Shown piece after piece: positions 22,997 through 60,449 of a stretch of 64,000 nucleotides of DNA. Below the pieces are notes generated by a model. That model saw only the letters and a list, made by a program, of their open reading frames with translations. It ran no database searches and was not told the origin of the DNA. How positions within the stretch are numbered: position 1 is the first letter of the stretch; each line of letters starts with the position of its first letter. Position numbers and translations under genes: made by a program. Origin of the DNA: Nocardioides cavernaquae (GTDB lineage: Bacteria; Actinomycetota; Actinomycetes; Propionibacteriales; Nocardioidaceae); the NCBI RefSeq assembly GCF_003600895.1, contig NZ_QYRP01000002.1, positions 2,294,001-2,358,000 on the forward strand. The letters are read 5' to 3'.

Positions 22997-23063
22997 CTCC
23001 CTCCGACGGGTGGTCAGGTCACCCCTGCGGGGGGACGGCGGCCGCATGTGAGCGCCCTAGCGT
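22997..23063 (+). promoter_or_regulatory. C/G-box promoter P1
   Basis: Two C-rich/G-rich inverted-repeat boxes, a degenerate one at 22997-23013 (CCTCCCTCCGACGGGTG) and a clear one at 23021-23036 (ACCCCTGCGGGGGGAC), precede a TAGCGT -10 box at 23058-23063. Box centres are 23 bases apart and the near box is centred 30 bases before the -10. No -35 is visible. The palindrome CGTGATCACG at 23064-23073 sits at the expected start of transcription. Drives the gene at 23131. Confidence 0.6.
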
Positions 23064-23130
23064 CGTGATCACGCGGAGTCCGGGCAGCGGACCCGGTCCC
23101 GCTCCTTCGGAAACGAATCGAGGAGCCGAC

Positions 23131-23964
23131 ATGGGCCGCATGCCCTCAGATGTCCTGAACCACGAGCTCAGCCTGATCTGGCAGCAGGTCTTCACCTGGG
23201 CCAGCTGGGCGATCGTCGTCGCGATGCTTGTCGTCGCTGTGCGGATGGGGATCCGTCAGCGAACCCCGTTCTACGTCTTCGCCTGTTCGGCTGCGGCCGT
23301 GGCTGCCTTCGCGGAGCCGCTCTATGACGTCGCCTTCGACCTGTGGTTCTACGACGTCCACAACGGTGCGCCGGGTGCGATGTGGTCGCACTTCACTGCC
23401 TTCGGCGTCGTCCAGCCGAACTGGACCCACAGCGGCTACGTGATTCTGTACACCAGTGCCTGCCTGTACGCCGGGCGCCGGCTCTACCTCGGCGGCCTGG
23501 GACGCCGGGGGCTCTTCCTCATCTGGGGGATCGAGATCGCCGCTTCGGTCGTGTTCGAGGTGATCGGCACGGCCACGGTCTACACCTACTACGGGCCCTA
23601 CGAGCTGAGGATCGGCAACTACCCGCTTGTGATCGGCGTCCTCGAGGGCACGCAGGTCGTGCTGTTCACGGTGGTCGCGGTGCAGATCTGGCGACGCGTC
23701 TCGTCGGCCTGGGGTCTGACCGCACTGTTCGTGGCTTTCCCGATGACGTTCTTCGCAGCGAACTTCGGCCTCGGCGCGCCCATCATCATCGCGCTCCACC
23801 TGGACGAGAGCGCCTTCTCCAGCGGCATCGTCTGGACGGCAACCCTGCTGACGATGGGACTGTGCGCCATCGCCGTCAACGGACTCAGCAGGTTCATCCC
23901 GAGGCCGCTCGGTGCCGCTGAGCCCGACGGCGCCACGTCGCCGCAGGCCGCCGTCGTCGGCTGA
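23131..23964 (+). CDS. Seven-helix membrane protein, possibly AveC-like
   Basis: A 277-residue integral membrane protein with about seven hydrophobic segments and a short polar tail. The loop after helix two contains AEPLYDVAFDLWFYDV and WSHFTAFGVVQPNW. This reminds me of the aromatic/Asp-rich segment of AveC-family (spirocyclase-like) proteins common in actinobacterial lipid clusters, but I am not certain. GAGGA precedes ATG 23131; an in-frame start at 23065 is earlier than the ribosome-binding site. Its promoter belongs to the shared C/G-box set, so it is probably co-regulated with the Mce operon. Confidence 0.7.
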   Translation: MGRMPSDVLNHELSLIWQQVFTWASWAIVVAMLVVAVRMGIRQRTPFYVFACSAAAVAAFAEPLYDVAFDLWFYDVHNGAPGAMWSHFTAFGVVQPNWTHSGYVILYTSACLYAGRRLYLGGLGRRGLFLIWGIEIAASVVFEVIGTATVYTYYGPYELRIGNYPLVIGVLEGTQVVLFTVVAVQIWRRVSSAWGLTALFVAFPMTFFAANFGLGAPIIIALHLDESAFSSGIVWTATLLTMGLCAIAVNGLSRFIPRPLGAAEPDGATSPQAAVVG

Positions 23965-23999
23965 CCCGGAGGCGGGCCGCCACCGCGCGGGAGGGCAAG

Positions 24000-24067
24000 A
24001 ACCCCCGTTCGGACGGCCAACCCCCCACCACGGGGGGACGCCCCACCCAGCAGCCGGACCCTACGTT
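24000..24067 (+). promoter_or_regulatory. C/G-box promoter P2
   Basis: A degenerate box at about 24000-24016 (AACCCCCGTTCGGACGG) and a strong box at 24021-24037 (six C, ACCAC, six G) precede TACGTT (24062-24067). Centres are 21 bases apart; the near box is centred about 33 bases before the -10. Same layout as P1. Drives the SCP2 and acyl-CoA dehydrogenase genes. Confidence 0.6.
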
Positions 24068-24127
24068 CGGTGAAGGCCGTCAGGTGGCGACCCGCCCGCC
24101 CGAGTGGGCACGATCAGGAGGTACCCC

Positions 24128-24541
24128 GTGAGTACGTTCAAGGATGCCGACGAGGTGTACGCCTTCATTGGCAAGGCAATGGAAGCCTGCGTCGTCGACC
24201 CGCAGTTCGTCGAGGCAACCAAGGACGGCAACCTCGTCGTCCTCATCAAGCAGACCGACCCCGAGGCCCACGTCCTGGTCGACTTCCCCGGCCAGAAGGT
24301 CCTGACCGGAGACGCCGCCGCTGCGGCGGAGTCGACCGTGCAGCTGCGGATGAGCTCGGACAACGCCAACCGCTTCTGGCAGGGCAAGCTCAACTTCACC
24401 CTCGCCATGGCGCAGCGCAAGGTCAAGCTCGAGGGCAAGCGCACCACCGCGCTCGGTCTCCTGCCCCTGACCGGCCCGATCTTCGACACCTACAAGGCCA
24501 TCCTCACCGAGGCCGGCCGCACCGACCTGCTCGTCGACTGA
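24128..24541 (+). CDS. SCP2 sterol-transfer domain protein
   Basis: A 137-residue single-domain protein with the SCP2 fold: a charged helical N-terminus, the VVLIKQTDPEAHVLVDF sheet region and the hydrophobic C-terminal end GLLPLTGPIFDTYKAIL that lines a lipid tunnel. It probably binds an acyl-CoA or sterol-like ligand in the cytosol and hands it to enzymes. GTG 24128 is chosen because AGGAGG lies seven bases upstream. The acyl-CoA dehydrogenase gene follows after 50 bases, and both share promoter P2. Confidence 0.85.
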   Translation: MSTFKDADEVYAFIGKAMEACVVDPQFVEATKDGNLVVLIKQTDPEAHVLVDFPGQKVLTGDAAAAAESTVQLRMSSDNANRFWQGKLNFTLAMAQRKVKLEGKRTTALGLLPLTGPIFDTYKAILTEAGRTDLLVD

Positions 24542-24591
24542 CGACAGCTCGCCTTCCACGCATTCCGGCAATGACATCGGCAGGAGCCACC

Positions 24592-25827
24592 ATGAACGAC
24601 AAGATCACCGAGGCGGAGTTCGACGCCGTCTTCACGAAGGCCCAGGAGCTCTCGCAGTTCTTCCGCGAGATCGGCCCGAAGTACGACATCGAGAACACCT
24701 TCGCCTACCCGTCCATCGAGGCCTTCAAGAAGAGCGGGCTGGGCGCGCTTCCCGTCCCGAAGCAGTACGGCGGCATGGGAGGCGACCTGCTCGCCACCTC
24801 GAAGGTGGTCAGCGAGCTGTCGAAGGGTGACTCCGCGATCACCCTCGCCTACAACATGCACTACATCATGGTCGGCATCACGATGGGCCTGATGAGCGAG
24901 ACCCAGAACAAGTACTGGCTCGGCCGCGTCGCTGATGGCGACATCATGTTCGGCCCGTTCTCCGAGCAGCGCGCCGGCTTCAGCGGCCTTGCGGACATGA
25001 AGGCCATCCCGCAGGAAGGTGGCGGCTGGAAGCTCTACGGCAAGAAGGTGTGGGGCACGCTGTGCGAGGCCGCCGACATCGTCACCACGAACGCGACCAT
25101 CACCGACGCCGACGGCAACCTGCCCGAGAACTTCGAGGAGCGCGTCAGCGCTGAGTCCTTCTTCATCGGCGAGTTCAACGTTGATGAGAACGGCCAGGGC
25201 GACGGCATCAGCATCGTCAAGACGTGGGACGCGCTGGGCATGCACGCCACTGGCACCCAGACGGTCATCTTCGACGGCTACTACGTGCCCGAGGACGGCT
25301 TCATCTGCGAGTGGCGCACCGGCGCCTTCGGCGTACTCGAGTGGGCCTCGCTGATGTTCGCGAGCATCTACCTCGGCATGCAGGACCGGATCCTTGAAGA
25401 GGCACGCGCGGTGCTCTCCAAGAAGACGCTTGGTGCTGTTTTCGGTGCCGTGGTAGCAGCCGACGTCAAGGTCGCGGGGGTTGGCCACATCATCGACGGC
25501 GTCGGTGACATGGCGTCCCGTTACGAGCTGTCACGCCGCGTGCTCTACCGGACGTGCGAGGAAGTCAGCGGCGGCTACGACGACAACTGGCCGATCGAGC
25601 TCCGGTTCCCCTACATCGGCCTGGCCAAGACCTTCATCGCGGAGAACGTCATGCACATGAGTCGGCACGCCATGAGCCTCGTCGGCGGCCAGTCGTTCAA
25701 GAAGGGCGCCATCTTCGAGCGCCTCTACCGCGACTCGGCGGCGTCGATGTTCCAGCCGCTCAACTCCGACCAGTCGCGCACCTACATCGGTGAGGTCCTG
25801 CTCGCCCCGGAGGAGCTCGAAGACTGA
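24592..25827 (+). CDS. Acyl-CoA dehydrogenase with relocated catalytic Glu
   Basis: A 411-residue acyl-CoA dehydrogenase with FGPFSEQRAGFSGL as the flavin/substrate motif and a C-terminal FAD-contact region (SLVGGQSFKKGAIFERLYRDS). At the place where most family members have the catalytic Glu (YEGT) this protein reads MFQPLNSDQSR, so that Glu is missing. Glu250 in GVLEWASLMFASIYLG aligns with the alternative Glu of isovaleryl-CoA and long-chain enzymes, so it is probably still active. ATG 24592 follows GGCAGGAG; ATG 24571 is the alternative. Paired with the SCP2 gene. Confidence 0.88.
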   Translation: MNDKITEAEFDAVFTKAQELSQFFREIGPKYDIENTFAYPSIEAFKKSGLGALPVPKQYGGMGGDLLATSKVVSELSKGDSAITLAYNMHYIMVGITMGLMSETQNKYWLGRVADGDIMFGPFSEQRAGFSGLADMKAIPQEGGGWKLYGKKVWGTLCEAADIVTTNATITDADGNLPENFEERVSAESFFIGEFNVDENGQGDGISIVKTWDALGMHATGTQTVIFDGYYVPEDGFICEWRTGAFGVLEWASLMFASIYLGMQDRILEEARAVLSKKTLGAVFGAVVAADVKVAGVGHIIDGVGDMASRYELSRRVLYRTCEEVSGGYDDNWPIELRFPYIGLAKTFIAENVMHMSRHAMSLVGGQSFKKGAIFERLYRDSAASMFQPLNSDQSRTYIGEVLLAPEELED

Positions 25828-25846
25828 TCCCGCAAGCCCACGACGA

Positions 25847-25875
25847 CCCGCTCCCCTCGACCCGGAGCGGGTTTT
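25847..25875 (+). terminator. Rho-independent terminator after acyl-CoA dehydrogenase
   Basis: CCCGCTCC (25847-25854) pairs with GGAGCGGG (25864-25871), followed directly by TTTT. This is the most classical terminator in the window and ends the SCP2 unit. Confidence 0.8.
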
Positions 25876-25904
25876 CGTGCTTCCCGGGGACGTCCTCGAG
25901 GAGG

Positions 25905-25971
25905 CCTCCCCACAAGGACGGCAGGGATCCTCCCGTGGGGGGAAGTGGCGGACTTCCTGCGCTCCTACGGT
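25905..25971 (+). promoter_or_regulatory. C/G-box promoter P3
   Basis: A degenerate box around 25905-25921 (CCTCCCCACAAGGACGG) and a clear one at 25929-25943 (CCTCCCGTGGGGGGA) precede TACGGT (25966-25971). Centres are about 23 bases apart and the near box is about 30 bases before the -10. Drives the two NTF2-fold genes. Confidence 0.6.
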
Positions 25972-26035
25972 CGTGATGTGGGGTTCGTCTCAATCACATG
26001 ACGGCCGGCCCTACCAACTCGACCAAGGAGATCTC

Positions 26036-26497
26036 ATGAACTACGCGTTTGCCGTCAAGTGGCTGAAGGCGTTCCGTGACAGCGCGGAGTCGATCTGCGA
26101 GCTGTACGCCGACGACTTCGTCTTCGAGGACCCGATCCTCGACCAGTACCAGATCCGCGACAAGGGCGACCTCGCGCGCATCTTCGTGCTCTACGCCAAC
26201 AAGGACCGCACCAACGGTTACGGCGTGCACAACTTCCGGATCCGTGGCTACGAGGGCGACCACCGCAGCGGCCTGATCCGCTGGGAGTGGTCCCCGGAGG
26301 ACTGCGCCAACTTCATCGGCATCGATGTCGTGGACAAGCCCTTCTTCACGCAGGGCCACACCTTCCACATCTACGACGACGAGGGCCGCATCGTGCGCGA
26401 GTCGTCCTGGTGGGACTCCGGCGCGATCATGACCGCCGTGGGTGTCCCCGGGGTGCAGAAGCCCCAGTTCGTCGCCAAGACCGCCGTCCCGGCCTGA
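26036..26497 (+). CDS. NTF2/SnoaL-like protein A
   Basis: A 153-residue protein of the NTF2 superfamily (SnoaL-like): N-terminal helix FAVKWLKAFRDS, ELYADDFVFEDP, then a curved sheet (LIRWEWSPED; GHTFHIYDDEGRIVRESSWW). Members include ketosteroid isomerase and limonene-epoxide hydrolase, and also non-catalytic proteins. ATG 26036 follows AAGGAG. The next gene encodes a clear paralogue, so a heterodimer is likely. Enzymatic role is unknown. Confidence 0.8.
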   Translation: MNYAFAVKWLKAFRDSAESICELYADDFVFEDPILDQYQIRDKGDLARIFVLYANKDRTNGYGVHNFRIRGYEGDHRSGLIRWEWSPEDCANFIGIDVVDKPFFTQGHTFHIYDDEGRIVRESSWWDSGAIMTAVGVPGVQKPQFVAKTAVPA

Positions 26498-26510
26498 GAG
26501 AGGACCTGAA

Positions 26511-26996
26511 ATGACGGACATCGCATTCGCCCAGCGCTGGGCAGAGACTCGCACCAACGACCTCGCCGCGCACCGTGAGCTCTACGCCGCACCGGAGTTC
26601 TTCTGTGTCGAGACCCGGATGGTCGACGACCACCTCGGCGACACGCTCTCGACCGACGGAGAGTTCGCGGAGGGCCTGGCGCCCTACGCCAACAAGGACG
26701 AGTCCAACGGTCTCGGCGTCCAGAGCATCACGGTCACCGATGCCTTCGTCGGCAACGGCCACCTGTTCATCCACTGGGACTGGAAGGTCGATGGCGCGGA
26801 CAGCTACCGCGGGCTCCCGGTCGAGGGCAAGTCCCTGACCAGCAAGGGATCGACGTTCCTGCAGTTCGACGCCGCCGGCAAGATCATTCTCGAGTCGACG
26901 TTCCTCAACGAGAACCCGGTCTTCCAGCAGCTCGGCCTGCCGATCATCACCCCGCACTACTGGGAGGAGGGCTTCGACCCGGCGTCGCTGGGTTGA
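26511..26996 (+). CDS. NTF2/SnoaL-like protein B, paralogue of the preceding gene
   Basis: A 161-residue protein that lines up with the preceding one along its whole length: shared features include FAxxW, ELYA, YANKDxxNGxGV, a W-D/E-W strand and the DxxGxI-ES ending. It starts 13 bases after the first gene. Polar residues in the pocket differ (for example HWDWKVDG against RWEWSPED), as expected if only one partner is catalytic or they bind opposite ends of a ligand. A strong terminator follows. Confidence 0.8.
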   Translation: MTDIAFAQRWAETRTNDLAAHRELYAAPEFFCVETRMVDDHLGDTLSTDGEFAEGLAPYANKDESNGLGVQSITVTDAFVGNGHLFIHWDWKVDGADSYRGLPVEGKSLTSKGSTFLQFDAAGKIILESTFLNENPVFQQLGLPIITPHYWEEGFDPASLG

Positions 26997-27011
26997 TCCT
27001 TCACCGCAACA

Positions 27012-27044
27012 AGAATGGCCGGGGACGAGGTCCCCGGCCATTCT
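27012..27044. terminator. 15-bp bidirectional terminator
   Basis: Bases 27012-27026 pair perfectly with 27030-27044 around the loop GAG. The hairpin lies between convergent genes (NTF2-like B on the plus strand, SMR exporter on the minus strand) and begins and ends with A/T-containing ends, so it can stop transcription from both sides. Confidence 0.85.
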
Positions 27045-27062
27045 GCATTTGCGACTGAGGCG

Positions 27063-27374
27063 TCAGCCGAGGTTGAGGGCCACCACGCCGAGGATCACGA
27101 AGACCAGACCGGCGGCCCTGGCCGGCGTGAGCGTTTCGTCGAGGAAGACGATCCCGATGCCGGCAACGGCAGCGGTGCCGACTCCCGACCAGATCGCGTA
27201 GACGACGCCGACCGGCATCCGCTGCACGACCTGGGCGACGAGCGCGAAGGACACGGCGTACCCGGTCAGGCATCCGAGCGTTGGCAGCAGCCTGCTGAAG
27301 CCCTCGGTGGTCTTGAGCATGGAGGTGGCGAGCACCTCGACGGCGATCGCGACGCCCAGCAGTAACGGTGCCAT
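27063..27374 (-). CDS. SMR-family small multidrug exporter
   Basis: A 103-residue protein with four membrane helices, the standard size for EmrE/QacE/SugE. The essential charged residue is Glu13 in VAIAVEVLATS in helix 1; WSGVGTAAVAGIG is the helix-3 signature. It functions as a dimeric proton-coupled antiporter of cationic compounds or guanidinium. Whether it is the EmrE or the Gdx/SugE branch cannot be decided by eye. Single minus-strand gene between two C/G-box units; I see no link to lipid metabolism. Confidence 0.88.
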   Translation of the reverse strand: MAPLLLGVAIAVEVLATSMLKTTEGFSRLLPTLGCLTGYAVSFALVAQVVQRMPVGVVYAIWSGVGTAAVAGIGIVFLDETLTPARAAGLVFVILGVVALNLG

Positions 27375-27431
27375 GACCTCACGCTAGGTCCGCTCCGACT
27401 CCCTGCCGCCTCCCAGCGGGAGCACATCCGC

Positions 27432-27528
27432 CCTCCTGGTGGGGGAGGCAGAAATGCGGCCTCCCCCCAAGGGGGGTGGGTGTTCCTCCCCTGAGGTGTC
27501 GTCCACGTCACATCGCCAGACCTACGTT
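27432..27528 (+). promoter_or_regulatory. C/G-box promoter P4 of the Mce operon
   Basis: Three boxes: CCTCCTGGTGGGGGAGG (27432-27448), a near-perfect palindrome with six C, AA, six G (27460-27479) and CCTCCCCTGAGGTG (27486-27499). The -10 is TACGTT (27523-27528). The two nearer boxes are centred 22 bases apart and the nearest is 31 bases before the -10. It is the richest of the set and stands before the 16-gene operon. Confidence 0.65.
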
Positions 27529-27605
27529 CGTGACACAGCCAACAAAGAGCTGGGCGGCGGGGGGAACCAGGCGCCGCAGACACGAGCAGCAAGGAAGCAG
27601 GAGCC

Positions 27606-29174
27606 ATGTGGGGCACGATGCCGGACGTTCTGGACAGGGCATGTGGGGACTACACGAAGTCCGTCGCGGTCGTCGACGGCGAGCGACGGATCACGTACGG
27701 CGAGCTGCGCGACTGGTCGAACCAGGTCGCCAACGCGCTGATCTCCCTGGGGCTGCAGAAGGGTGAGCGGGTTGGCCTGCTCCTCCCGAACTGTCTCGAG
27801 TTCATCCCGTCGCAGCACGGCATCTGGAAGGCCGGCGGTGTGCTGGTGCAGATGCCCGGCCGCGCCGCCGCATCGGTGCACCGCGCGAACCTTGACCAGA
27901 CCGACGTCACGACGCTCATCTACCACGCGGCGTACGACGGCGTGGTCGAGGAGATGCGCGAGGGGCTGCCGAAGCTGGCCCGCGTCATCCGTGTCGGTGG
28001 CGACGTGGCCGCGTCCAGCGACCACCCGTTCGAGGCGCTGGTCTCCGCTCAGTCCACCGTGCGCCCCGCTGTCCCGCTCGACGAGCACGACGAGGCCTAT
28101 GTCCTCTTCACCTCGGGCAGCACCGGTGACCCGAAGGGTGTCGTGCAGTCGCACTTCACGTGGGCCCACTACAGCATCACCGCCGGACTCGAGATCGGCG
28201 ACATCCAGCCCGGTGAGGTCTTCGCCCATGGTGCGCCGCTGACCCACTTCACGCAGATCTTCGTGCACCCGACCTTCCTGCGGGGAGGCACCAATGTCAT
28301 GCTGCCGGGCCTCGAGGTGGACACCCTGCTGTCCGCGATCGAGCGCGAGAAGATCACCGCCACTGCAGTGGTGCCGACCATCATCTACCTGCTCCTGGAC
28401 CACCCCGAGCGCAGCAAGTACGACCTCTCGTCGCTGCGCACGATGATCTACGCCGGCTCGCCGATCGCCCCCGACCGGCTCAAGGACGCGCTCGAGGCGC
28501 TCGGCCCGATCTTCGTCCAGACCTACGCCGGCACAGAGCCGGGCTACGTCTCCTGCCTCCGCAAGACCGACCACCGCGTCGACTCCGACGAAGCGATCAA
28601 GCGTCTGGCATCCGGTGGACGTCCGCTTCCGTTCGTCCAGGTGAGCATCCAGGACGACGAGGACAACCCGCTCGCTGTAGGCGAGGTCGGTGAGATCTGC
28701 TCCCGCCAGCTCGGCCAGATGCTCGGGTACGTCGACTCGTCGCGCAACGCAGAGGCCCTCCGCGACGGGTGGGTGCACACGGGCGACATCGGCCGCCTCG
28801 ATGAGGACGGCTTCCTCTACCTGGTCGACCGCAAGAAGGACATGGTCGTCAGCGGTGGTTTCAACGTCTTCCCGCGCCAGGTGGAGGACGTGCTCCTCGA
28901 GGACGCGGCCGTCGCTGGAACTGCCGTGGTCGGCATCCCGCACCCCAAGTGGGGCGAAGCGGTCCACGCCTTCGTCGTCGTCAAGGACGGCGTCGCCGCT
29001 GACGAGGCGCTCGTCGAGCAGCTCCAGGGCCGGGTCAAGACCGCGCTCGGCTCGGTCTCCGCACCCAAGACCGTGGACTTCATCACCGAACTGCCCCTCA
29101 ACCCCGCCGGGAAGGTCGACAAGAAGACCCTCCGCGCCCCGTTCTGGCAAGGCCGCGACCGTCAGGTCGGCTGA
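27606..29174 (+). CDS. AMP-forming acyl-CoA ligase (FadD-like)
   Basis: A 522-residue acid-CoA ligase: P-loop FTSGSTGDPKG, the A5-type motif QTYAGTEPG, GWVHTGDIGRLDEDGF, and the C-terminal Lys in NPAGKVDKKTLR. It activates a carboxylic acid to its CoA thioester through an acyl-adenylate. First gene of the 16-gene operon; ATG 27606 follows AAGGAAGCAGGAG, with ATG 27618 an alternative. Aldehyde dehydrogenase follows after 27 bases, suggesting alcohol/aldehyde to acid to CoA ester. Substrate may be a lipid side chain or terpenoid acid (inference). Confidence 0.9.
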   Translation: MWGTMPDVLDRACGDYTKSVAVVDGERRITYGELRDWSNQVANALISLGLQKGERVGLLLPNCLEFIPSQHGIWKAGGVLVQMPGRAAASVHRANLDQTDVTTLIYHAAYDGVVEEMREGLPKLARVIRVGGDVAASSDHPFEALVSAQSTVRPAVPLDEHDEAYVLFTSGSTGDPKGVVQSHFTWAHYSITAGLEIGDIQPGEVFAHGAPLTHFTQIFVHPTFLRGGTNVMLPGLEVDTLLSAIEREKITATAVVPTIIYLLLDHPERSKYDLSSLRTMIYAGSPIAPDRLKDALEALGPIFVQTYAGTEPGYVSCLRKTDHRVDSDEAIKRLASGGRPLPFVQVSIQDDEDNPLAVGEVGEICSRQLGQMLGYVDSSRNAEALRDGWVHTGDIGRLDEDGFLYLVDRKKDMVVSGGFNVFPRQVEDVLLEDAAVAGTAVVGIPHPKWGEAVHAFVVVKDGVAADEALVEQLQGRVKTALGSVSAPKTVDFITELPLNPAGKVDKKTLRAPFWQGRDRQVG

Positions 29175-29201
29175 CCCAACCACCACCAACAGGAGAATCC
29201 G

Positions 29202-30707: not shown

Positions 30708-30759
30708 GCGATCCGCCTGATCGACCCGCTCAACCGACATCCCCGACCGAGGAGCAGCC

Positions 30760-43044: not shown

Positions 43045-43046
43045 CC

Positions 43047-46363: not shown

Positions 46364-46593
46364 GCGGCGCGATCATCGGGGCGACGGTGGCGCTCGTGGC
46401 GTTCTTCCTCGGCTGGTGGGGCCTGAACAACGGTGCCGGCCTGGTCCCTGCGAGTGCCTCGGCCGCACGTCGTGAGCGGGAGGAACGGGCCATCCGGCGC
46501 GGCGCGCGTTCCCTGATGGCGATGGCGGGGCTCTTCGCCGTCATGGCTGCGCTCTCCCTGGTGACTGCGCTTGCGGACCACCCCACTCCTTAG
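46360..46593 (+). CDS. Small two-helix membrane protein
   Basis: A 77-residue protein beginning at GTG 46360, overlapping the previous stop. Two hydrophobic helices (GAIIGATVALVAFFLGWWGL and SLMAMAGLFAVMAALSLV) flank a strongly basic-acidic loop (AARREREERAIRRGAR). Last gene of the 16-gene operon. I do not recognise a family; a small accessory subunit of the importer is a guess from position. Confidence 0.65.
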   Translation: MSGAIIGATVALVAFFLGWWGLNNGAGLVPASASAARREREERAIRRGARSLMAMAGLFAVMAALSLVTALADHPTP

Positions 46594-46611
46594 GAGGGGT
46601 AACCCCCTCCT
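46592..46611 (+). terminator. Hairpin at the end of the Mce operon
   Basis: AGGAGGGG (46592-46599) pairs with CCCCTCCT (46604-46611) around TAAC. The stem begins at the stop codon of the last operon gene. Confidence 0.6.
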
Positions 46612-46640
46612 CTGCGGCGACGCGGACCACATCGCCGCAG
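46612..46640 (+). terminator. Second hairpin, directly adjoining
   Basis: CTGCGGCGA (46612-46620) pairs with TCGCCGCAG (46632-46640), loop 11 bases. Together with the first hairpin it forms a tandem structure between the Mce operon and the carboxylase genes; no T-run. Confidence 0.55.
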
Positions 46641-53657: not shown

Positions 53658-54421
53658 CCACGACGGTCGAGGTCGTCGACGACGGTCCGGTCCGGACGCT
53701 GATCCTGACCGGACCCATGACGCTGAACGCACTGGCGGAGTCGACGGCGAATGCGCTCCACGACGAGATCCTCCGTGCGGAGCGCGACGACTCAGTCCAT
53801 GCCCTTGTGCTGACCGGAGCGGGTGAGCACTTCTCCGCGGGCGGTGACGCCGAGGGTGTGCTGCGGGCAAACGACCGCCCTGACGATGATGCCCTGCTCC
53901 GCTTCATGCGCGCCTACCAGCGTGCGGCCAAGGCGGTCTGGGAGAGCCCGCTGCCTATCATCGCGGCAGTCTCGGGCGTCGCCTACGGTGGCGCGTTCAA
54001 TCTCGCGATCGCCTGCGACCTCGTGGTCTGCTCGCGGAACGCCCGCTTCTGCCAGGTCTTCTTGCGACGCGGCCTCGTTCCGGACTTCGGTGGAGCGTTC
54101 CTCCTGCCGCGAATCGTCGGCATGCAGCGCGCGAAGGCCTTGATGCTCCTCGCCGACGAGATCGACGCGGTCACCGCGTATGAGTACGGCCTGGTCAACG
54201 TCGTCGTCGACACCCCCGATGAGGCCCGCATCCATGCGCTCGGACTCGCTCACCGGATCGCTGCGGACTCGCGCCTCGCGGTTTCGCTGACCAAGAGGCT
54301 GATCCACCAGAGTGCCAGTGGATCCTTCCCCTCCGCACTCGAGCTGGAGGCCTTGAGCCAGACGATGGTGTTGGGCTCGAACACCGCCCGGAGCGCGTTC
54401 GAGGCCTTCCGCGAGCGCTGA
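53654..54421 (+). CDS. Enoyl-CoA hydratase/isomerase family protein
   Basis: A 255-residue crotonase-fold protein with GAGEHFSAGGDAEGV and AAVSGVAYGGAFNLAIACDL as oxyanion hole, and RRGLVPDFGGAFLLPRIVG where the catalytic acid region lies (Asp rather than Glu). Last gene of the carboxylase/AtuA operon; ATGA overlap with the AtuA-like gene. Could be hydratase, isomerase or lyase. Confidence 0.85.
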   Translation: MTTTVEVVDDGPVRTLILTGPMTLNALAESTANALHDEILRAERDDSVHALVLTGAGEHFSAGGDAEGVLRANDRPDDDALLRFMRAYQRAAKAVWESPLPIIAAVSGVAYGGAFNLAIACDLVVCSRNARFCQVFLRRGLVPDFGGAFLLPRIVGMQRAKALMLLADEIDAVTAYEYGLVNVVVDTPDEARIHALGLAHRIAADSRLAVSLTKRLIHQSASGSFPSALELEALSQTMVLGSNTARSAFEAFRER

Positions 54422-54423
54422 CC

Positions 54424-55617
54424 TCAGAGCTGCACGTCGAGGATCCGCCTGCAGATGGACCGCAGGTCGTCGTCGACCGCTGGCCGTGCCCGGAGGTGGT
54501 CGGTGCGGGCGACGTCGTTGATCACCGTGAGGGCGGCGTGGACCACGAACCGTGCCTGTGACTCGTCGAGGGCGGGTCGAGTTTCGCGGATCAGCCGGAT
54601 CCACTCGGCGACGTAGTCATGCTGTGCCCGCCGCACGTCCCGGCGGTGTTCGTCCGGGAGGTTCGTGACCTCAGCGACGAGGATGCCGACGAGGTCGTGG
54701 TGGACGAGAGCAAACTCCACGTAGGCATCGAGCAGGTTCTCGAGGCCTTCCCGGCTGTCGCGAGCGCGAGCGAGGGCGCGCGTGGCGCCGAGCTGGAGCG
54801 GCTCCGAGGCCCGCGCGATCACCGCGGAAAGAAGGTCGGCCTTGCGCGGGAAGTACTTGTAGATGGCGGCGCCGCTGATGCCGACACTCTCGCCGACGTC
54901 CTCCATGGAGACCGCCTGATAGCCCCGATCGTGGAAGAGGCGGGTCGCTGCCGCCAGCGTGGCCTCGCGGCGCCCGTGAGGCAGGAGCCCAGGGGACTCC
55001 GGCTCCGGCGCCGATCCCGTGGGCGATGGGTGCGCGAGCGGGGTGGTGCACGCGGCAAGGGTCATCTGCTCGAGGAGGTCCACGAGCGCTCCGGGATCCA
55101 TGCTGCTGCCGTGGTAGGACGGGCTGGTCAGGACGGCGAGCGCCGACCATGCCAGCAGGTCAGCGTCGGCCGCGGACAGGTCGGGTCGGGTCGACCGGAG
55201 CTGGCGGGCGAACTCGTCGAGGAAGGCGAAGAACCGCTCGCGCATCGCTGCCCGCGCATCGTCGCTGAGAAAACGTGCCTCGCGGTTCCACAGGATGCCG
55301 AGGTAGCGACGTTCGCCCGCAGTGGATGCGATGCGCCTGATCAGGTCCTGGAGGTCACGGGGAGGGTTCTGAGTGACGAGGCGCGTCGCCTGATCGAACG
55401 CCTCGGTCAGGGTGTGGCTGAGGAGGTCCTGTTTCCCCTTGAAGTGGCGGTACAGCGCTCCGGCAGTGATGCCGACCGAATCCGCGATCTGCCCGGTGCC
55501 GACGTTGTGGAAACCGTGGCGGTAGAACAGCTCGCCCGCAGCAGCAACGATCTGCTGCTTGCGATCGCGTGGTCGTGGCGTCCGCTTGAGCGGCGCTCGT
55601 CGCGTCACCTCGGTCAC
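54424..55617 (-). CDS. Tandem double TetR-family regulator
   Basis: A 397-residue protein containing two complete TetR units. The first helix-turn-helix is at about 19-65 (TGQIADSVGITAGALYRHFK), the second at about 217-262 (MEDVGESVGISGAAIYKYFP). Each is followed by a helical ligand domain, linked by a Pro/Ser-rich segment near 200. Normal TetR proteins are about 200 residues dimers, so this is a single-chain dimer. It converges on the carboxylase/AtuA operon and is divergent from nitronate monooxygenase. Confidence 0.92.
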   Translation of the reverse strand: MTEVTRRAPLKRTPRPRDRKQQIVAAAGELFYRHGFHNVGTGQIADSVGITAGALYRHFKGKQDLLSHTLTEAFDQATRLVTQNPPRDLQDLIRRIASTAGERRYLGILWNREARFLSDDARAAMRERFFAFLDEFARQLRSTRPDLSAADADLLAWSALAVLTSPSYHGSSMDPGALVDLLEQMTLAACTTPLAHPSPTGSAPEPESPGLLPHGRREATLAAATRLFHDRGYQAVSMEDVGESVGISGAAIYKYFPRKADLLSAVIARASEPLQLGATRALARARDSREGLENLLDAYVEFALVHHDLVGILVAEVTNLPDEHRRDVRRAQHDYVAEWIRLIRETRPALDESQARFVVHAALTVINDVARTDHLRARPAVDDDLRSICRRILDVQL

Positions 55618-55660
55618 TTTCCTCCCCTGTCCGTCCGGCCGTGGAGCGATTGCCCACGTA

Positions 55661-55680
55661 GGTTATGCGTGGTTTACTTA
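55661..55680. promoter_or_regulatory. 20-base motif copy 1 in the TetR/monooxygenase divergent region
   Basis: GGTTATGCGTGGTTTACTTA here matches 17 of 20 positions of the reverse complement of 57913-57932. It lies between the start of the double TetR gene and the monooxygenase gene, where an operator would be expected. See the matching copy before the Mce-associated genes. Confidence 0.4.
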
Positions 55681-55743
55681 GGGCAACTAGTGCGGTTCGA
55701 TTCTCGGTCCGCAGTGATTATCTTGGCCGGTCATCGATTTACT

Positions 55744-55749
55744 TATCAT
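55744..55749 (+). promoter_or_regulatory. Putative -10 box of the nitronate monooxygenase gene
   Basis: TATCAT fits the TANNNT pattern and lies 30 bases before ATG 55779, with GGAGG between. No clear -35 hexamer at the usual distance. Confidence 0.4.
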
Positions 55750-55778
55750 GTCACGCCGGCCGCGCCGGAGGTATCGCA

Positions 55779-56699
55779 ATGACCGTGTCGCCTGCCCTTT
55801 TGAAGCGCCTGGCCCTACCGTTGATCGCGGCCCCGATGACGGGCGTTTCGGGTGAGGACCTCGTCATCGCCGCCTGTCGCAATGGCGTGGTCGGGTCCTT
55901 TCCCACGCACAACGCGCCTTCGGTGGACGAGCTCGACCGCTGGCTCGGGCGGATGTCGGACGAGCTGGGTGCGGACGCCGCGCCGATCGCTCCGAACCTG
56001 GTCGTGCACCCGACCAACAAGCGACTCGATGCCGACCTCGATCGCCTCGTGGCGCATGGCGTGGAGCTGGTGATCACCAGCGTCGGATCGCCCGCGCCGG
56101 TCATGGACCGGTTCCACGCAGCGGGCTGCGCGGTGTTCGCCGACGTCGCCACGCTGCGCCAGGCGCAGAAGGCCATTGCTGCCGGCGTTGACGGTCTGGT
56201 GCTGCTGACTGCCGGTGCCGGCGGGCAGACCGGCCAGGCCAATCCGTTCGCGTTCGTGCGGGCAGTGCGCGAGATCTTCGACGGCGCGATCGTTGCCGCG
56301 GGCGGCATCGCTGACGGCCGCGCTGTCCTTGCCGCCCAGGTGCTCGGAGCCGACCTCGCCTACATGGGCACCCAGTTCATCGCGACCCGCGAGAGTCTCG
56401 CTTCTCGCGAGTACCGCGACGCTCTCGTGCGATCGACGATGGATGACGTCCGGCTGACCAGTGAGGTGAGTGGACTCCCCGCGAGCCTGTTGGCCGAGTG
56501 GCTCGACAACCGCGAGTCGGCTCCGGTCTCGGCGGGCGACTTCCGGGAGGACCGGCTGACGTCGAGCCCGGACCTGTGGAGCGCCGGGCACAGCGTCTCC
56601 GGCGTGCGGGACATCCCCGACGTCGCGACGCTCATCGCCAGGATCTCCGGTCAGTACGCCGCGGCGAAGGCCGAGACGCGCGCCAGCCTCGCCAGCTGA
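55779..56699 (+). CDS. Nitronate monooxygenase / 2-nitropropane dioxygenase family
   Basis: A 306-residue FMN-dependent TIM-barrel protein: LPLIAAPMTGVSGEDLV at the N-terminus, the phosphate-binding region IVAAGGIADGRAVLAAQVLGAD and GTQFIATRES are family signatures. The loop GAGGQTGQANPFAFV holds the usual HxGG-like catalytic place, but the His is not apparent (TAGAGGQTGQ), so the activity may be other than nitronate oxidation. ATG 55779 follows GGAGG. Divergent from the double TetR gene. Confidence 0.83.
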   Translation: MTVSPALLKRLALPLIAAPMTGVSGEDLVIAACRNGVVGSFPTHNAPSVDELDRWLGRMSDELGADAAPIAPNLVVHPTNKRLDADLDRLVAHGVELVITSVGSPAPVMDRFHAAGCAVFADVATLRQAQKAIAAGVDGLVLLTAGAGGQTGQANPFAFVRAVREIFDGAIVAAGGIADGRAVLAAQVLGADLAYMGTQFIATRESLASREYRDALVRSTMDDVRLTSEVSGLPASLLAEWLDNRESAPVSAGDFREDRLTSSPDLWSAGHSVSGVRDIPDVATLIARISGQYAAAKAETRASLAS

Positions 56700-56755
56700 G
56701 CAAGCCGGCTGAGTACTTCGGTTCGGCACTTCGGCTGGGGACGCCGACTGCTCGA

Positions 56756-57265
56756 TCACAGCAGGCGGATGCCGGCGACCTTCCATGCGTCGCCCGCGTT
56801 GTGCATCCGGAGAACCAGCTGCGCCGGCCCGCTCCCGGTCTGACCGGACGGCGTCGTCGCCAGCTGGTCGGCGAAGACAAGCAGCTCTGCGTCGTCGCCC
56901 TTCAGCCAGATCACGCCGAGCGTGCGTACCGTCGTACGGAGCGTGAGACCCTGGCCCTTCGCTCGTCGGAGGTGGGGGCCGTAGAGCTTGTCGTACTGGG
57001 CCACGCCGTCACCCACGAGCGCGGACGCTGCCTGCCGCTGGGTCTCGGCGACCCGGTCGGGACGGATGGAGAAGATCTTCTCGGTGGTGGCGGTGCCCTC
57101 GCGCAACAGCGCCTCTGTGGTGGTTGCGGAGACGAAGGCGACGTTGTCGTCGCCGCCGTCTGTCTGCCAGACCTGGAGTGCGAGCGCAGCGATGACTGCA
57201 AGGACGAGAACGGCCGCGAGGGCTGCAATGGTCCTCGCCCGGGTGGTGGCGGGAGCGCTGATCAT
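56756..57265 (-). CDS. Mce-associated membrane protein 1
   Basis: A 169-residue protein with a single N-terminal membrane helix (about 12-30, AALAAVLVLAVIAALALQVW) and an outside domain of NTF2/VirB8-like layout ending in GDAWKVAGIRLL. This layout (helix, TEALLREGTATTEKIFSI, then WKV near the end) is that of Mas proteins that accompany mce genes. Start overlaps the stop of the partner gene by four bases. Possibly stabilises the importer at a distance from the operon. Confidence 0.75.
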   Translation of the reverse strand: MISAPATTRARTIAALAAVLVLAVIAALALQVWQTDGGDDNVAFVSATTTEALLREGTATTEKIFSIRPDRVAETQRQAASALVGDGVAQYDKLYGPHLRRAKGQGLTLRTTVRTLGVIWLKGDDAELLVFADQLATTPSGQTGSGPAQLVLRMHNAGDAWKVAGIRLL

Positions 57266-57843
57266 GACGTCGTCCTCACGGTCTCCAGGTAGGTGATCTT
57301 CCAGTCCGTCCCGAGCCGCTGCATCAGCACGCGGAACCGGGAGACGGATGTGGTGGCCTTGCCGCTCGTTGGCGTCGCCCGGATCTCAACGACGCCGAGG
57401 ATGGTCGCCATCCCTGCGGTCTCGTCCAGTGCGGACACGGCGGTCTCCAGGACGGTTGCTGTCGTCGACCCTCCACGCTTCATGGTCCGGATGGCCTTGG
57501 TGCGGCCCTTCTTGAGCTTGGACTCGAGTGCGCCACCTGAGCGCCCGATCCATCCGTCGACGGTCTGCTCGGCGGCATGGGGGTCGACCGTGTTGAGGGC
57601 TGCGAGCGCACGCGACGCAGCTTCGGAGGCTCCGTCGCGGGCCTGCACCGTCCGCTGCTCGGCGCTGCCCTTGTCGCTGCTCCACGGCTTCCACGCCGCC
57701 AGTGCGCCCAGCGCGAGCGCCAGCGCGAGAGCGGCAAGCACGAACCGCCTGGTCAGCGTGGCGGCGTGGCCATCGATCTGGAGATTCGCGGCCGGGGTCG
57801 TGTCCGGCGCGTGCCCCTCGGCCTCTTCTGTGGTCGTGTCCAC
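57262..57843 (-). CDS. Mce-associated membrane protein 2
   Basis: A 193-residue protein: polar N-terminus of about 37 residues, a membrane helix (FVLAALALALALGALAAW) and an outside domain ending TDWKITYLETV, the same plan as the next gene. GTG 57843 is chosen because GGAGG lies seven bases upstream; an ATG further upstream near 57925 has no ribosome-binding site. The 20-base motif copy 2 lies about 70 bases upstream. Confidence 0.75.
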   Translation of the reverse strand: MDTTTEEAEGHAPDTTPAANLQIDGHAATLTRRFVLAALALALALGALAAWKPWSSDKGSAEQRTVQARDGASEAASRALAALNTVDPHAAEQTVDGWIGRSGGALESKLKKGRTKAIRTMKRGGSTTATVLETAVSALDETAGMATILGVVEIRATPTSGKATTSVSRFRVLMQRLGTDWKITYLETVRTTS

Positions 57844-57912
57844 TGACCAACCTCCTGATCGCAGCGGATACCGGCAGTGGGGGAGGGTTCCGAGGCTGCC
57901 GATGATTTCCTC

Positions 57913-57932
57913 GAAGTAAACCATGCGTAACC
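57913..57932. promoter_or_regulatory. 20-base motif copy 2
   Basis: Read on the minus strand this is GGTTACGCATGGTTTACTTC, 17 of 20 bases identical to 55661-55680 and in the same orientation relative to the gene it precedes (Mce-associated protein 2). It may be an operator shared with the TetR region. Confidence 0.4.
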
Positions 57933-58032
57933 CCCAGGAGGCCACGGTCGCTTTCGCGGATGCTGGCCGACTGAGGGCGAGAGCGCCGCAATATGGCCTG
58001 ACGACGGCCTGCGCGCCGGGGTTGACTTGCGC

Positions 58033-58048
58033 TGTGACGACCGTCACG
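58033..58048. promoter_or_regulatory. CRP/GlxR-like palindrome before the LuxR pair
   Basis: TGTGACGACCGTCACG contains TGTGA-N6-TCAC, the core of CRP/FNR-family operators, and a 14-base perfect palindrome at 58034-58047. It ends 16 bases before ATG 58064, next to the ribosome-binding GGGAGGG. A -35-like TTGACT is at 58022. A site this close would most likely repress. Confidence 0.45.
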
Positions 58049-58063
58049 ATGGGAGGGAAGTAA

Positions 58064-59230
58064 ATGCTCCGCAAGTTTACGGCGACAAGGGGTTGGGTCC
58101 GACAGATGACTGTTTCACTGGGCTGCGAGGCGGGATCGTTCCTCGAGGGTGAGGGGCTGGAAGGTCGGCGCCGCGGGATCGAGGCAAGGATCCGCTCCCT
58201 TGCGGTCGCAGCGGCCCTGCCCGCCAACACGTCCGGCCTCGAAGCGCTTGACTCGCCGAGCGTGCTGGGGTGGAGCGGCGTCGAGCTGGATGACCAGCGT
58301 GCGCTGTATGCCGCGACCGAGGCCGCGATCGCCGTTGTCGCCGACCGAATTCTCCCTGCTCCGCTGCTCGCGGCCCGTCGCGTCAACCTCGCGCTCGAGC
58401 GGATCCAGGCCGCCACGTGCCTGGTCGATGTTCTCCGTGCGCTGCCGTCGGAGCTTGCCTGGGCAGGGAACTTCGATCGAGTGCTCTTCTCCCGGGTTGA
58501 GGGTTCGTCGTGGTCGCCGGAGACGTGGTTCACGACCCAACCCGGCGCGCCCGAGGACAAAGCCTTCGGCGAGTTCGTTCACGGGGCAACCTTCACCTTG
58601 GCAAGTGGCTCGATCGAGGCGGAGATCGTGCGCCGACGGGTCACTGCCCTCGTGTGCGATGCAGCTGATGAGACCCGGACCTTTGCTCCGCTGCTGAGCG
58701 TCGCGCACTGCGAGTCCTACGTCATCGCGCCGGTGGTGTCCGGCGACTCGGTCGTGGGGCTCCTCCATGCTGACGCGACTGCGTCAGGACGCGCTCTGGT
58801 CGAGGCTGACCGGGTGACCATCCGCGCCTTCGGCGACGGCATCGGACTGGTAATCGAGCGACTGGCGCTGCTCGAGGCTCTGGAGGAGCAGCGTCGCCAG
58901 ATTCACGCTGCGCTCGCTCGCGCCGAGCTCGTGGTGGATCAGCTCTGTGATGCCCCCGTCGTTCTCACGGGGGAGGCTCCCGCACCTGTCGTGCGGAGAG
59001 ACTCCGGGGGCGGTGCCCCTGCGGATGGGCTCACCTCCCGTGAGCGGGAGGTCTTCGCGCTCCTCATCTCGGGTGCCACCAATCCTGAGATTGCGGACCG
59101 ACTGACTGTCTCCGAGACCACGGTGAAGTCCCACGTGAAGCACATCCTTCGCAAGATGCGCGTCAGCAACCGCGCGGAGGCGATTGCCAAGCATCTCAGG
59201 AGCAACGACCGGTTCGGAGTTGCGTCATGA
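58064..59230 (+). CDS. GAF-LuxR transcriptional regulator 1
   Basis: A 388-residue regulator with a helical N-terminus, a GAF-type sensor at about 130-275 (YVIAPVVSGDSVVGLLHAD), a short coiled segment and a C-terminal LuxR helix-turn-helix at about 320-380 (LTSREREVFALLISGATNPE; TVKSHVKHILRKM). ATG 58064 follows GGGAGGG. Overlaps the next regulator gene by four bases. A good candidate, with its partner, for binding the C/G boxes (inference). Confidence 0.88.
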   Translation: MLRKFTATRGWVRQMTVSLGCEAGSFLEGEGLEGRRRGIEARIRSLAVAAALPANTSGLEALDSPSVLGWSGVELDDQRALYAATEAAIAVVADRILPAPLLAARRVNLALERIQAATCLVDVLRALPSELAWAGNFDRVLFSRVEGSSWSPETWFTTQPGAPEDKAFGEFVHGATFTLASGSIEAEIVRRRVTALVCDAADETRTFAPLLSVAHCESYVIAPVVSGDSVVGLLHADATASGRALVEADRVTIRAFGDGIGLVIERLALLEALEEQRRQIHAALARAELVVDQLCDAPVVLTGEAPAPVVRRDSGGGAPADGLTSREREVFALLISGATNPEIADRLTVSETTVKSHVKHILRKMRVSNRAEAIAKHLRSNDRFGVAS

Positions 59231-60375
59231 GCGTGGCCGCGCAGGCCAAGTCAACCGTTTTCGCGTCGACCGGACGCAGCGTGCGGCCGCGCCTGACCGG
59301 GCAGCACCGCGCTCGCGCGACCGAGTTGAGGTTGCTCGTGGGTGACGCCCTCGGCGTCAACCCCGGCGCGTTGATGGCCGAGGATCCGACGGAGGACTAC
59401 TCGCCCGAGCGCGTCGCGACACTCGCACGCATCTGCGTCGGAGAGGCGCAGGTGGATGACAGAGGGGACGAGCAGCGCGCTCGCGACCTGCTGGACCTCG
59501 CGCTGCAGCTCCAACAGGTTGCTCTCGACATGCACGAGGAGAACCTGGTCCAGCGCAACCGCCGACTGGCCGAGTGTGCCGAGGGGTTGGCCCGGCTACG
59601 CGGCCTGCCCACCTCGCACGACCTGGTCGAGACCGCATGTGAGGAGATCGCGAACCGCGCCGGATTCGGTCGCGTCACCATCTCGAGTGTCGAAGGAAAT
59701 GCATGGAAGCCGCGCAAGGCCTTCTTCGCGGAGGCCGACGACGCCTGGTTCGATGACTGGATCGGACAGGAGATCCCGCTTCAGGGGCTGACTCCCGAGG
59801 CGCGCTTGCTCACGGAGCGTCGTCCGGCGCTGATCCTGGACACCGCCTCGACGCAGGTCCACGAGGACATCATCGTCGAAGCGGGGAGTTCCTTGTCGTA
59901 CGTTGTGGCACCGGTCTGCTCGCGCGGCTCGGTCGTTGCGTTCCTGCATGCCGATCACTTCCCGACCAACCGCGTGGCGTCGGAAGCGGACCGTGACCTG
60001 CTCTGGGCCTTCGCGGATGGCTTCGCACGCATCCATGAGCGCACCGTTCTCATGGAGAGGGTCCAGGCACAGCGCGCTCAGGTGGGCGCGATCCTGGACA
60101 CCGCGCTCCGGTCGCTTCCTGACTCGCTCGGGGCAGCCCCGCGGTCGGGCGAGCTCGCGACTCGTGCGCGCCTGCAGGCCTTCGCCGAGTTGACCGCACG
60201 CGAGACCGAAGTGCTCGGTCTCATGGTCGCCGGCGCGGCCAACCGCGCCATCGCCGCTCGACTGGTCATCGCTGAGGACACTGTGAAGTCCCACGTCAAG
60301 CAGATCCTGCGAAAGCTCGGTGTCTCCAACCGCGCGCAGGCGATCGCGCGTGCTGCGGGCACCTCGACCTTCTGA
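59227..60375 (+). CDS. GAF-LuxR transcriptional regulator 2
   Basis: A 382-residue paralogue of the preceding regulator: GAF-type domain about 130-275 (YVVAPVCSRGSVVAFLHADH) and LuxR helix-turn-helix about 320-380 (LTARETEVLGLMVAGAANRA; TVKSHVKQILRKLG). The N-terminal 60 residues include a helix-turn-helix-free segment unlike protein 1. Coupled translation suggests the two act together, perhaps as a heterodimer. C/G-box promoter P5 follows ten bases after its stop. Confidence 0.88.
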   Translation: MSVAAQAKSTVFASTGRSVRPRLTGQHRARATELRLLVGDALGVNPGALMAEDPTEDYSPERVATLARICVGEAQVDDRGDEQRARDLLDLALQLQQVALDMHEENLVQRNRRLAECAEGLARLRGLPTSHDLVETACEEIANRAGFGRVTISSVEGNAWKPRKAFFAEADDAWFDDWIGQEIPLQGLTPEARLLTERRPALILDTASTQVHEDIIVEAGSSLSYVVAPVCSRGSVVAFLHADHFPTNRVASEADRDLLWAFADGFARIHERTVLMERVQAQRAQVGAILDTALRSLPDSLGAAPRSGELATRARLQAFAELTARETEVLGLMVAGAANRAIAARLVIAEDTVKSHVKQILRKLGVSNRAQAIARAAGTSTF

Positions 60376-60384
60376 GATCGTCTG

Positions 60385-60449
60385 CCCCTTGGTGGGGGTG
60401 TGGTGACCACCGCAGGGTGATGTGACGCACGCCACGCCCTTCGTACGGT
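60385..60449 (+). promoter_or_regulatory. C/G-box promoter P5
   Basis: A clear box CCCCTTGGTGGGGGT (60385-60399) and a degenerate one ACCACCGCAGGGTGA (60406-60420), centres 21 bases apart, precede TACGGT (60444-60449); the near box is about 31 bases before it. A CRP-like TGTGACGCACGCCACG (60421-60436) lies between. Drives the small Cys-rich gene at 60485. Confidence 0.55.

What the first reader, a model, noticed from the sequence alone, without database searches (positions are those of the whole stretch)
22997..60449. A shared two-box promoter design at five transcription units
Five upstream regions (P1 22997-23063, P2 24000-24067, P3 25905-25971, P4 27432-27528, P5 60385-60449) each carry two C-rich/G-rich inverted repeats of the form CCYCC..GGGG, centres 21-23 bases apart, with the near box centred 30-33 bases before a TANNNT box (TAGCGT, TACGTT, TACGGT, TACGTT, TACGGT) and no -35. 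The near box would centre close to -42, the position of class II LuxR-type activators. I did not see this arrangement before the sugar, icmF or carboxylase operons. It predicts one regulon joining Mce import, CoA ligation, the SCP2/dehydrogenase pair, the NTF2-like pair and the Cys-rich/murein genes. I know of no described operator with this form.
Basis: partly seen in the sequence, partly recalled or inferred. Interest (0 to 1): 0.85.

Follow-up and report, generated by a model that had tools for sequence, protein, structure and literature searches.

The report
Shared two-box promoters, five operons
Five promoters around a lipid or isoprenoid breakdown cluster share a conserved pair of DNA boxes at fixed distances from the promoter, most likely read by a neighbouring pair of regulator proteins that switch the cluster on together.

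Summary
All five sites are where stated. With each unit and its orthologs left out of training, its window site still outscored every position more than 120 bp from P1-P5, both strands of 64 kb. In the 3.47 Mb genome the five (training) sites score 37-53 bits, the next 18.7. The 27 orthologous upstream regions examined in seven same-genus genomes keep the layout: far box 21-22 bp before near box, near box about 31 bp before TANNNT. Outside training, 30 of 32 upstream regions of the NTF2-like gene (Mycobacteriaceae, Nocardia and others) carry it, 29 at those spacings; control genes gave 0 of 24 and 0 of 29. GAF-LuxR2 relatives of 50% identity or more occur in exactly the seven of 196 genomes that hold the P2 dehydrogenase. 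Most likely these are class II-type operators of the tandem GAF-LuxR pair, two cooperating dimers per promoter. The kind is known: geometry like DevR/DosR, near box like BldM's. Seven paper searches aimed at this regulon listed no report of it. Binding, transcription starts, activation and inducer are untested.

The parts
22998..23015 (+). P1 far box
23019..23036 (+). P1 near box
23056..23065 (+). P1 -10 block CCTAGCGTCG
23131..23964 (+). P1 gene: protein without Pfam or NCBIfam family, membrane protein by its look; orthologs in G060, G072 and G034 keep the arrangement
24000..24017 (+). P2 far box
24022..24039 (+). P2 near box
24060..24069 (+). P2 -10 block CCTACGTTCG
24128..25827 (+). P2 genes: SCP2-like protein (24128-24541) and acyl-CoA dehydrogenase family protein (24592-25827)
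   Evidence: Pfam PF02036, PF02771, PF00441
25905..25922 (+). P3 far box
25927..25944 (+). P3 near box
25964..25973 (+). P3 -10 block CCTACGGTCG
26036..26996 (+). P3 genes: two SnoaL/ketosteroid-isomerase-like (NTF2-like) proteins, 26036-26497 and 26511-26996
   Evidence: TIGR02096 below cut-off; weak SnoaL below cut-off
27461..27478 (+). P4 far box (in register); extra boxes lie at 27409-27445
27483..27500 (+). P4 near box
27521..27530 (+). P4 -10 block CCTACGTTCG
27606..29174 (+). P4 first gene: AMP-binding acyl-CoA ligase; followed on the same strand by aldehyde dehydrogenase, RibBA-like protein, flavin reductase and Mce import genes (two MlaE permeases, ABC ATPase, MlaD/Mce protein). Co-transcription is inferred from short gaps
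58064..59230 (+). GAF-LuxR protein 1 (predicted regulator); own upstream has TTGACT/CACGAT and no such boxes
   Evidence: PF00196; GAF match below Pfam's cut-off
59227..60375 (+). GAF-LuxR protein 2 (predicted regulator)
   Evidence: PF00196 and PF01590 above cut-off
60383..60400 (+). P5 far box
60404..60421 (+). P5 near box
60442..60451 (+). P5 -10 block CGTACGGTGG (placed by hand after its G060 ortholog)
60485..62300 (+). P5 genes: 99-aa protein without family, 4 Cys (60485-60784), and SLT-type transglycosylase (ORF 60981-62300)
46582..46638 (+). Candidate weaker sixth site: box pair without a TANNNT at the usual distance, before the carboxylase (46690)
   Evidence: 17.7 bits; near box at 46604 is the best non-P pair in the three held-out scans without -10 that print its place (P2, P3, P5); similar boxes in G072, L063:9194-9244, 12.8 bits

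Best explanation
P1-P5 are the operator-promoters of one positively controlled regulon. The two adjacent GAF-LuxR proteins, one-component relatives of NarL-type regulators, sense a metabolite through their GAF domains and bind as dimers to the two inverted repeats. The near box is centred near -42, where it replaces the missing -35 element, and the far box two helical turns upstream near -64. The two cooperating dimers recruit RNA polymerase to the TANNNT -10 (class II-type activation). The regulon switches on, together, import (Mce), CoA activation, aldehyde and acyl-CoA oxidation and the NTF2-like enzymes for a lipid or isoprenoid-like substrate, plus the P5 genes. Shown: the boxes, their spacing, conservation and co-occurrence with the GAF-LuxR pair. 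Inferred: who binds, cooperativity, activation rather than repression, transcription starts, operon extent and the inducer.
For: Held-out unit test: five of five window sites outscore all positions more than 120 bp from P1-P5 on both strands, 10.8-37.0 against 3.5-8.7. 27 of 27 upstreams give the same near box with their unit left out; 0 of 100 shuffles reach the score for any. Own genome: the top five model hits are P1-P5. Outside training: 30 of 32 NTF2a upstreams at z>4 (30 shuffles each), 29 of 30 with far-near 21/22 and 29 of 30 with near-to-(-10) 37/38; carboxylase 0 of 24, aldehyde dehydrogenase 0 of 29. ACAD ortholog and GAF-LuxR2 relative of 50% identity or more occur in the same 7 of 196 genomes. 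Model hits of 31 bits or more: 31 in those seven genomes (27 training, 4 not), 1 in the other 189. In 17 genomes of wider relatives, 14 have a GAF-LuxR2 match at 1e-25, and in all 14 the best match has a same-strand neighbour of the kind within 700 bp. The regulators' own upstream has a TTGACT and no such boxes. Both proteins carry a GerE HTH; protein 2's matches DevR, NarL and VraR chains.
Against: No binding or expression data. Co-occurrence is confounded by relatedness of the seven genomes and of the many mycobacterial loci. L095 (an Aeromicrobium MAG) has the operators but no GAF-LuxR2 match at 1e-25, and G125 keeps an operator-like site before an SLT ortholog without such a match. In wider relatives, other units do worse: SCP2 6 of 18 at z>4 (4 at 22/38), membrane gene 5 of 18 (3 at 21-22/37), ACAD 1 of 36. 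Gordonia polyisoprenivorans (L093) has the pair but not the arrangement at NTF2a (z 1.1), though SCP2 passes (z 4.6). In G034 no P5-like pair is seen right behind the GAF-LuxR genes. The box type also occurs beside other LuxR-family genes.
Confidence: 0.77

Rival explanations
1. The boxes are operators of another NarL/LuxR-family protein of the cell, for example a two-component response regulator, and the GAF-LuxR neighbours are bystanders.
For: The same arrangement lies between a histidine kinase-response regulator pair and a fatty acid desaturase in G193 (32.8 bits), and LuxR-HTH matches lie in 6 of the 22 three-kb loci of the other genus genomes. So this box type is not private to this pair. 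The own genome has 15 matches to GAF-LuxR2 at E<=0.001.
Against: ACAD and GAF-LuxR2 orthologs are in the same 7 of 196 genomes. Strong own-genome hits are confined to this cluster. P5 lies directly behind the pair. The L095 exception is a MAG.
Confidence: 0.15
2. The boxes are repressor operators or act on another step, so that the paired sites block rather than recruit polymerase.
For: Inverted repeats next to a promoter are also typical of repressors; no expression data exist.
Against: No TTGACA match above 4 of 6 in any of 27 promoters while the -10 block is strongly conserved, and the near box holds the -35 position at fixed phase. This fits activator-dependent promoters; repressor sites are usually less constrained in phase (general knowledge).
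Confidence: 0.05
3. Chance or composition: C- and G-runs of a 68% G+C genome read as boxes.
For: Single boxes are common, 105 sites at 7-8 of 8 in the window. Without the -10 block held-out P2, P3 and P5 are matched or beaten by non-P positions.
Against: Held-out, orthology and out-of-sample tests of the full arrangement far exceed dinucleotide shuffles and control upstreams.
Confidence: 0.02

Closest known systems
DevR/DosR (NarL family) double-site promoters of Mycobacterium tuberculosis
   Same: Two or more closely packed sites bound cooperatively, the proximal one overlapping -35 (PMC3029386, passages); GerE HTH (DevR chains among PDB matches of GAF-LuxR2).
   Different: Box sequence: the OsdR consensus, said to conform to DevR's, is AGGGCCGATCGGCCCT (PMC5069765, passages); our near boxes match it at 4.2 and far boxes at 6.2 of 16 on average. 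DevR is a phosphorylated response regulator; here GAF one-component proteins.
BldM / BldM-WhiI operators of Streptomyces
   Same: TCACcCgnncGgGTGA and TGnnCCGnnCGGGTGA (PMC4125116, passages): similar half-site, same 4-bp centre. Near boxes match at 8.8 of 14 on average, range 7-10, far boxes 7.9, range 4-10; random 68% G+C DNA 4.0 (the boxes were picked for C/G form, so this comparison flatters).
   Different: One 16-bp site in each logo there; two boxes at fixed phase here. BldM/WhiI are atypical response regulators of development, not GAF proteins beside a catabolic cluster.
DesK/DesR-type kinase-regulator systems beside a fatty acid desaturase
   Same: G193 L158 has the same two-box-TANNNT promoter between a HisKA_3/response-regulator pair and a desaturase. 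Two-site binding by Bacillus DesR is recalled, from no call.
   Different: Two-component signalling and another target.
Rubber/isoprenoid catabolic genes of actinobacteria under TetR-type regulators
   Same: Similar gene content: Mce import, CoA ligation, acyl-CoA dehydrogenase (PMC8538451, passages); Gordonia polyisoprenivorans and Nocardia nova carry related genes.
   Different: TetR regulators of lcp are named there; here LuxR-type proteins.

Membership tests
NarL/LuxR-type class II activator regulon | Regulator with C-terminal GerE (LuxR) HTH encoded with the targets | tested here: met
   PF00196 in both proteins; DevR, NarL and VraR among PDB matches of protein 2
NarL/LuxR-type class II activator regulon | Proximal inverted repeat in place of -35, at about -42 | tested here: met
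   Near-box start to -10 block 37-38 bp in all 27 (26 by free fit, P5 of the window by hand); no -35. Position relative to a mapped start could not be tested
NarL/LuxR-type class II activator regulon | Regulator binds the boxes and activates | not testable with these tools
   Needs gel shift and transcript data
DevR/DosR regulon | DevR/OsdR-type box consensus | tested here: not met
   4.2 (near) and 6.2 (far) of 16 matches on average
DevR/DosR regulon | Receiver domain on the regulator | tested here: not met
   No receiver domain among Pfam matches at E<=0.001
BldM/WhiI operator family | TCACCC-N4-GGGTGA palindrome | tested here: inconclusive
   Near boxes 7-10 of 14 matches; similar, not identical
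BldM/WhiI operator family | Bound by BldM or BldM-WhiI | not tested
   BldM/WhiI orthologs not searched in this genome

The most novel reading that the evidence does not exclude
The two GAF-LuxR paralogs form an obligate pair, as heterodimer or as one dimer per box, and the two non-equivalent boxes at -42 and -64 read them separately, giving a one-component AND gate for an isoprenoid or lipid catabolic regulon. This would be a widespread actinobacterial regulator-operator system. Support: far and near boxes keep distinct sequences across units (25 of 27 paired assignments correct with the unit left out; P2 6 of 7, P5 1 of 2), and in 14 of 14 wider genomes that have a match the best GAF-LuxR match has a same-strand neighbour of the kind within 700 bp (48 of 77 matches overall).
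Probability: 0.3. Interest if true: 0.65.

Novelty: new member of a known kind. Interest (0 to 1): 0.52.

Why it matters
It gives a testable operator for tandem GAF-LuxR regulators; the seven searches of open-access papers aimed at such regulators or this cluster listed none for them, though most subscription papers are not held. It delimits a regulon linking Mce import to acyl-CoA catabolism, with its NTF2a promoter kept from Nocardioides to Nocardia and Mycobacteriaceae. That points to co-induced genes of unknown function (P1 protein, NTF2-like pair, P5 genes) and offers promoters for finding the substrate.

Tried and rejected
Single-box scanning was too unspecific (105 near-matches). Scanning the own genome for the -10 extension CCTACGKTCGTGA gave P3 and P4 exactly and nine one-mismatch places, seven forward and four reverse in all, against 0 and 4 for the reversed pattern: too weak alone. 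Considered and rejected: DevR box (consensus differs); chance composition. The box at 27432 is not the P4 box in register. Geranyl-CoA carboxylase identity of the carboxylase was not supported: best PDB match methylcrotonyl-CoA carboxylase beta (554 bits), geranyl-CoA carboxylase beta 442 bits. The substrate stays open: AtuA and neighbours suggest terpenoids, untested. Of ten paper searches, three sought yardsticks (BldM, DevR, DesR) and seven sought this regulon or such regulators; I saw listings and abstracts' beginnings, and passages of PMC4125116, PMC5069765, PMC3029386, PMC12919924, PMC8538451 and PMC8784404. PMC3466318, a survey of actinobacterial LuxR regulators, holds no 'GAF', 'operator', 'binding motif' or 'tandem'.

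Limits of the counts. The own-genome model search scored 150 first-look candidates and the genus search 24 per genome with stricter filters; the genus protein searches scored 9 candidates per genome. One script stopped with an error after printing the results used; its random control was redone. One search used 39 of the 44 loci (L079, L080, L088, L091 and L099 left out as same contigs as training genomes) and, per gene, only loci whose match passed identity and start limits (32 for NTF2a). P5 training used only the window and G060. Of other genomes, G072 has a 31.7-bit hit just behind its GAF-LuxR2, G034 shows none right behind it. The window's P5 -10 was placed by hand at 38 bp after the free fit chose an overlapping CCTTCGTACG at 34 bp; with free spacing and P5 left out the fit again gave 19 and 34 bp, and with spacing fixed P5 scores 10.8 against 6.6.
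Full report
WHAT WAS CHECKED. The five upstream regions were read and the boxes scored. Single boxes are common in this 68% G+C window, so the test has to be of the whole arrangement.

CONSERVATION. The acyl-CoA dehydrogenase (ACAD) of the P2 unit has an ortholog (77-92% identity) in 6 of 195 other genus genomes. Upstream regions of the P1-P5 genes in these genomes were collected by tblastn on fetched stretches: 4 for P1, 7 each for P2, P3 and P4, 2 for P5, 27 in all with the window. The exception, the window's P5 (34), was set by hand to the 38-bp site its G060 ortholog uses. With each unit and its orthologs left out of training, all 27 regions gave the same near box, and 0 of 100 dinucleotide shuffles reached the score for any. 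In that test 23 of 27 kept far-near 21-22 bp and 26 of 27 kept near-to-(-10) 37-38 bp. The deviants were P1 of G034 (19), P3 of G146 (18) and G034 (23), and the window's P5 (19 and 34).

CHANCE IN THE WINDOW. With spacing fixed at 21-22/37-38, each held-out window site beats every position more than 120 bp from P1-P5 on both strands: P1 34.1 against 8.0, P2 16.2 against 3.5, P3 27.6 against 8.7, P4 37.0 against 8.5, P5 10.8 against 6.6. Without the -10 block the separation fails for three of five: P2 (0.0) lies among many pairs, P5 (8.1) is beaten by two non-P positions and P3 (12.9) by one. The non-P position at 46604, before the carboxylase, is the best in the three scans that print its place.

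GENOME-WIDE. A sequence-only model of the 27 finds in the own genome five hits of 37-53 bits, which are P1-P5, then 18.7 bits. The five are training sequences; the informative part is the absence of a sixth. Over 196 genus genomes, 32 hits reach 31 bits: the 27 training sites, 4 further sites in the same seven genomes, and one in G193. Another 21 genomes have one or two weaker hits, 21-28 bits.

OUT OF SAMPLE. A named-genome search with the ACAD alignment gave 44 loci from Nocardioides, Marmoricola, Aeromicrobium, Nocardia, Rhodococcus, Gordonia, Mycobacteriaceae and others. Scoring NTF2a upstreams with the trained blocks and wide spacing (18-26 and 33-43): 30 of 32 at z>4 against 30 shuffles each, 29 of 30 at 21/22 and 29 of 30 at 37/38; the misses are L084 and L093, the odd spacing L116. 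SCP2 6 of 18 (4 at 22/38), membrane gene 5 of 18 (3 at 21-22/37), ACAD 1 of 36, carboxylase 0 of 24, aldehyde dehydrogenase 0 of 29. The 76-position model finds the NTF2a site in many of the same loci. Many loci are close relatives, so these are not independent trials.

WHO READS IT. The two tandem GAF-LuxR genes (58064-60375) end 7 bases before the P5 far box. GAF-LuxR2 relatives of 50% identity or more occur in exactly the seven genomes with the ACAD; the other 13 genomes with a match at 1e-25 have 33-44%. In 17 wider-relative genomes, 14 have a match at 1e-25, and in all 14 the best match has a same-strand neighbour of the kind. L084 and L119 lack both a match and the arrangement at the genes tested; L095 has the arrangement without a match. 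The regulators' upstream has TTGACT and no boxes, so feedback is not evident. The GAF match of protein 1 is below Pfam's cut-off, that of protein 2 above.

HOW IT LIKELY WORKS. If TANNNT is the -10, the near box centres close to -42 and the far box close to -64, on one face of the helix. That is the layout of NarL-family activators such as DevR, whose proximal site overlaps -35 and whose adjacent sites fill cooperatively (PMC3029386, passages). The near box resembles the BldM site (PMC4125116, passages). Far and near boxes differ in a way that carries over between units (25 of 27), which leaves room for two proteins with separate preferences.

SAME ARCHITECTURE ELSEWHERE. The G193 hit lies between a histidine kinase/response regulator pair and a fatty acid desaturase. 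LuxR-HTH matches lie in 6 of the 22 three-kb loci of the other genus genomes (L158, L162, L170, L171, L174, L175) and in 0 of the 24 loci of the own genome's weak hits (L128-L151); the own genome is a rough control, since genomes differ in LuxR number. So the box type belongs to a wider NarL/LuxR operator code, and this cluster is one use of it.

SUBSTRATE. Gene content (Mce import, CoA ligase, aldehyde dehydrogenase, ACAD, AtuA, carboxylase, ECH) and carriage by Gordonia polyisoprenivorans and Nocardia nova suggest an isoprenoid-like acid. The carboxylase is nearer methylcrotonyl- than geranyl-CoA carboxylase among solved structures. This part is inference.

VERDICT.

Noticed in passing
window 46582-46638; L063:9194-9244: Weaker box pair before the carboxylase operon, with similar boxes in G072, but no TANNNT at the usual distance; a possible sixth regulon site.
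   Followed up: partly
L090, L092, L096, L103, L111 and others, upstream of the carboxylase gene: A palindrome TTAGTGT-N7-TTCACTA stands before the carboxylase in several Mycobacteriaceae and Nocardia loci, as if a TetR-like repressor controlled it there.
   Followed up: no
window 57913-57920 and 58057-58064: Direct repeat GAAGTAAA on both sides of the GAF-LuxR1 promoter; AAGTAAA stands at both places in G060 too.
   Followed up: no
L158:815-2669: Same two-box promoter between a histidine kinase-response regulator pair and a fatty acid desaturase in G193.
   Followed up: partly
G228 (the genome of L097, Patulibacter minatonensis): 22 GAF-LuxR2 relatives at E<=1e-25 in one genome, many with a same-strand neighbour: an expanded regulator family.
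   Followed up: no
L160 (G125): An ortholog of the P5 transglycosylase (76% identity) has an operator-like site (26.3 bits) although no GAF-LuxR2 match at 1e-25 was listed for that genome.
   Followed up: no
L057:5724-5792, L060:2520-2589, L064:17710-17762, L059:1111-1175: Further operator-like sites in relatives directly before thiolase matches (first three) and a small multidrug-resistance-like match (last), so the regulon may be larger there.
   Followed up: no
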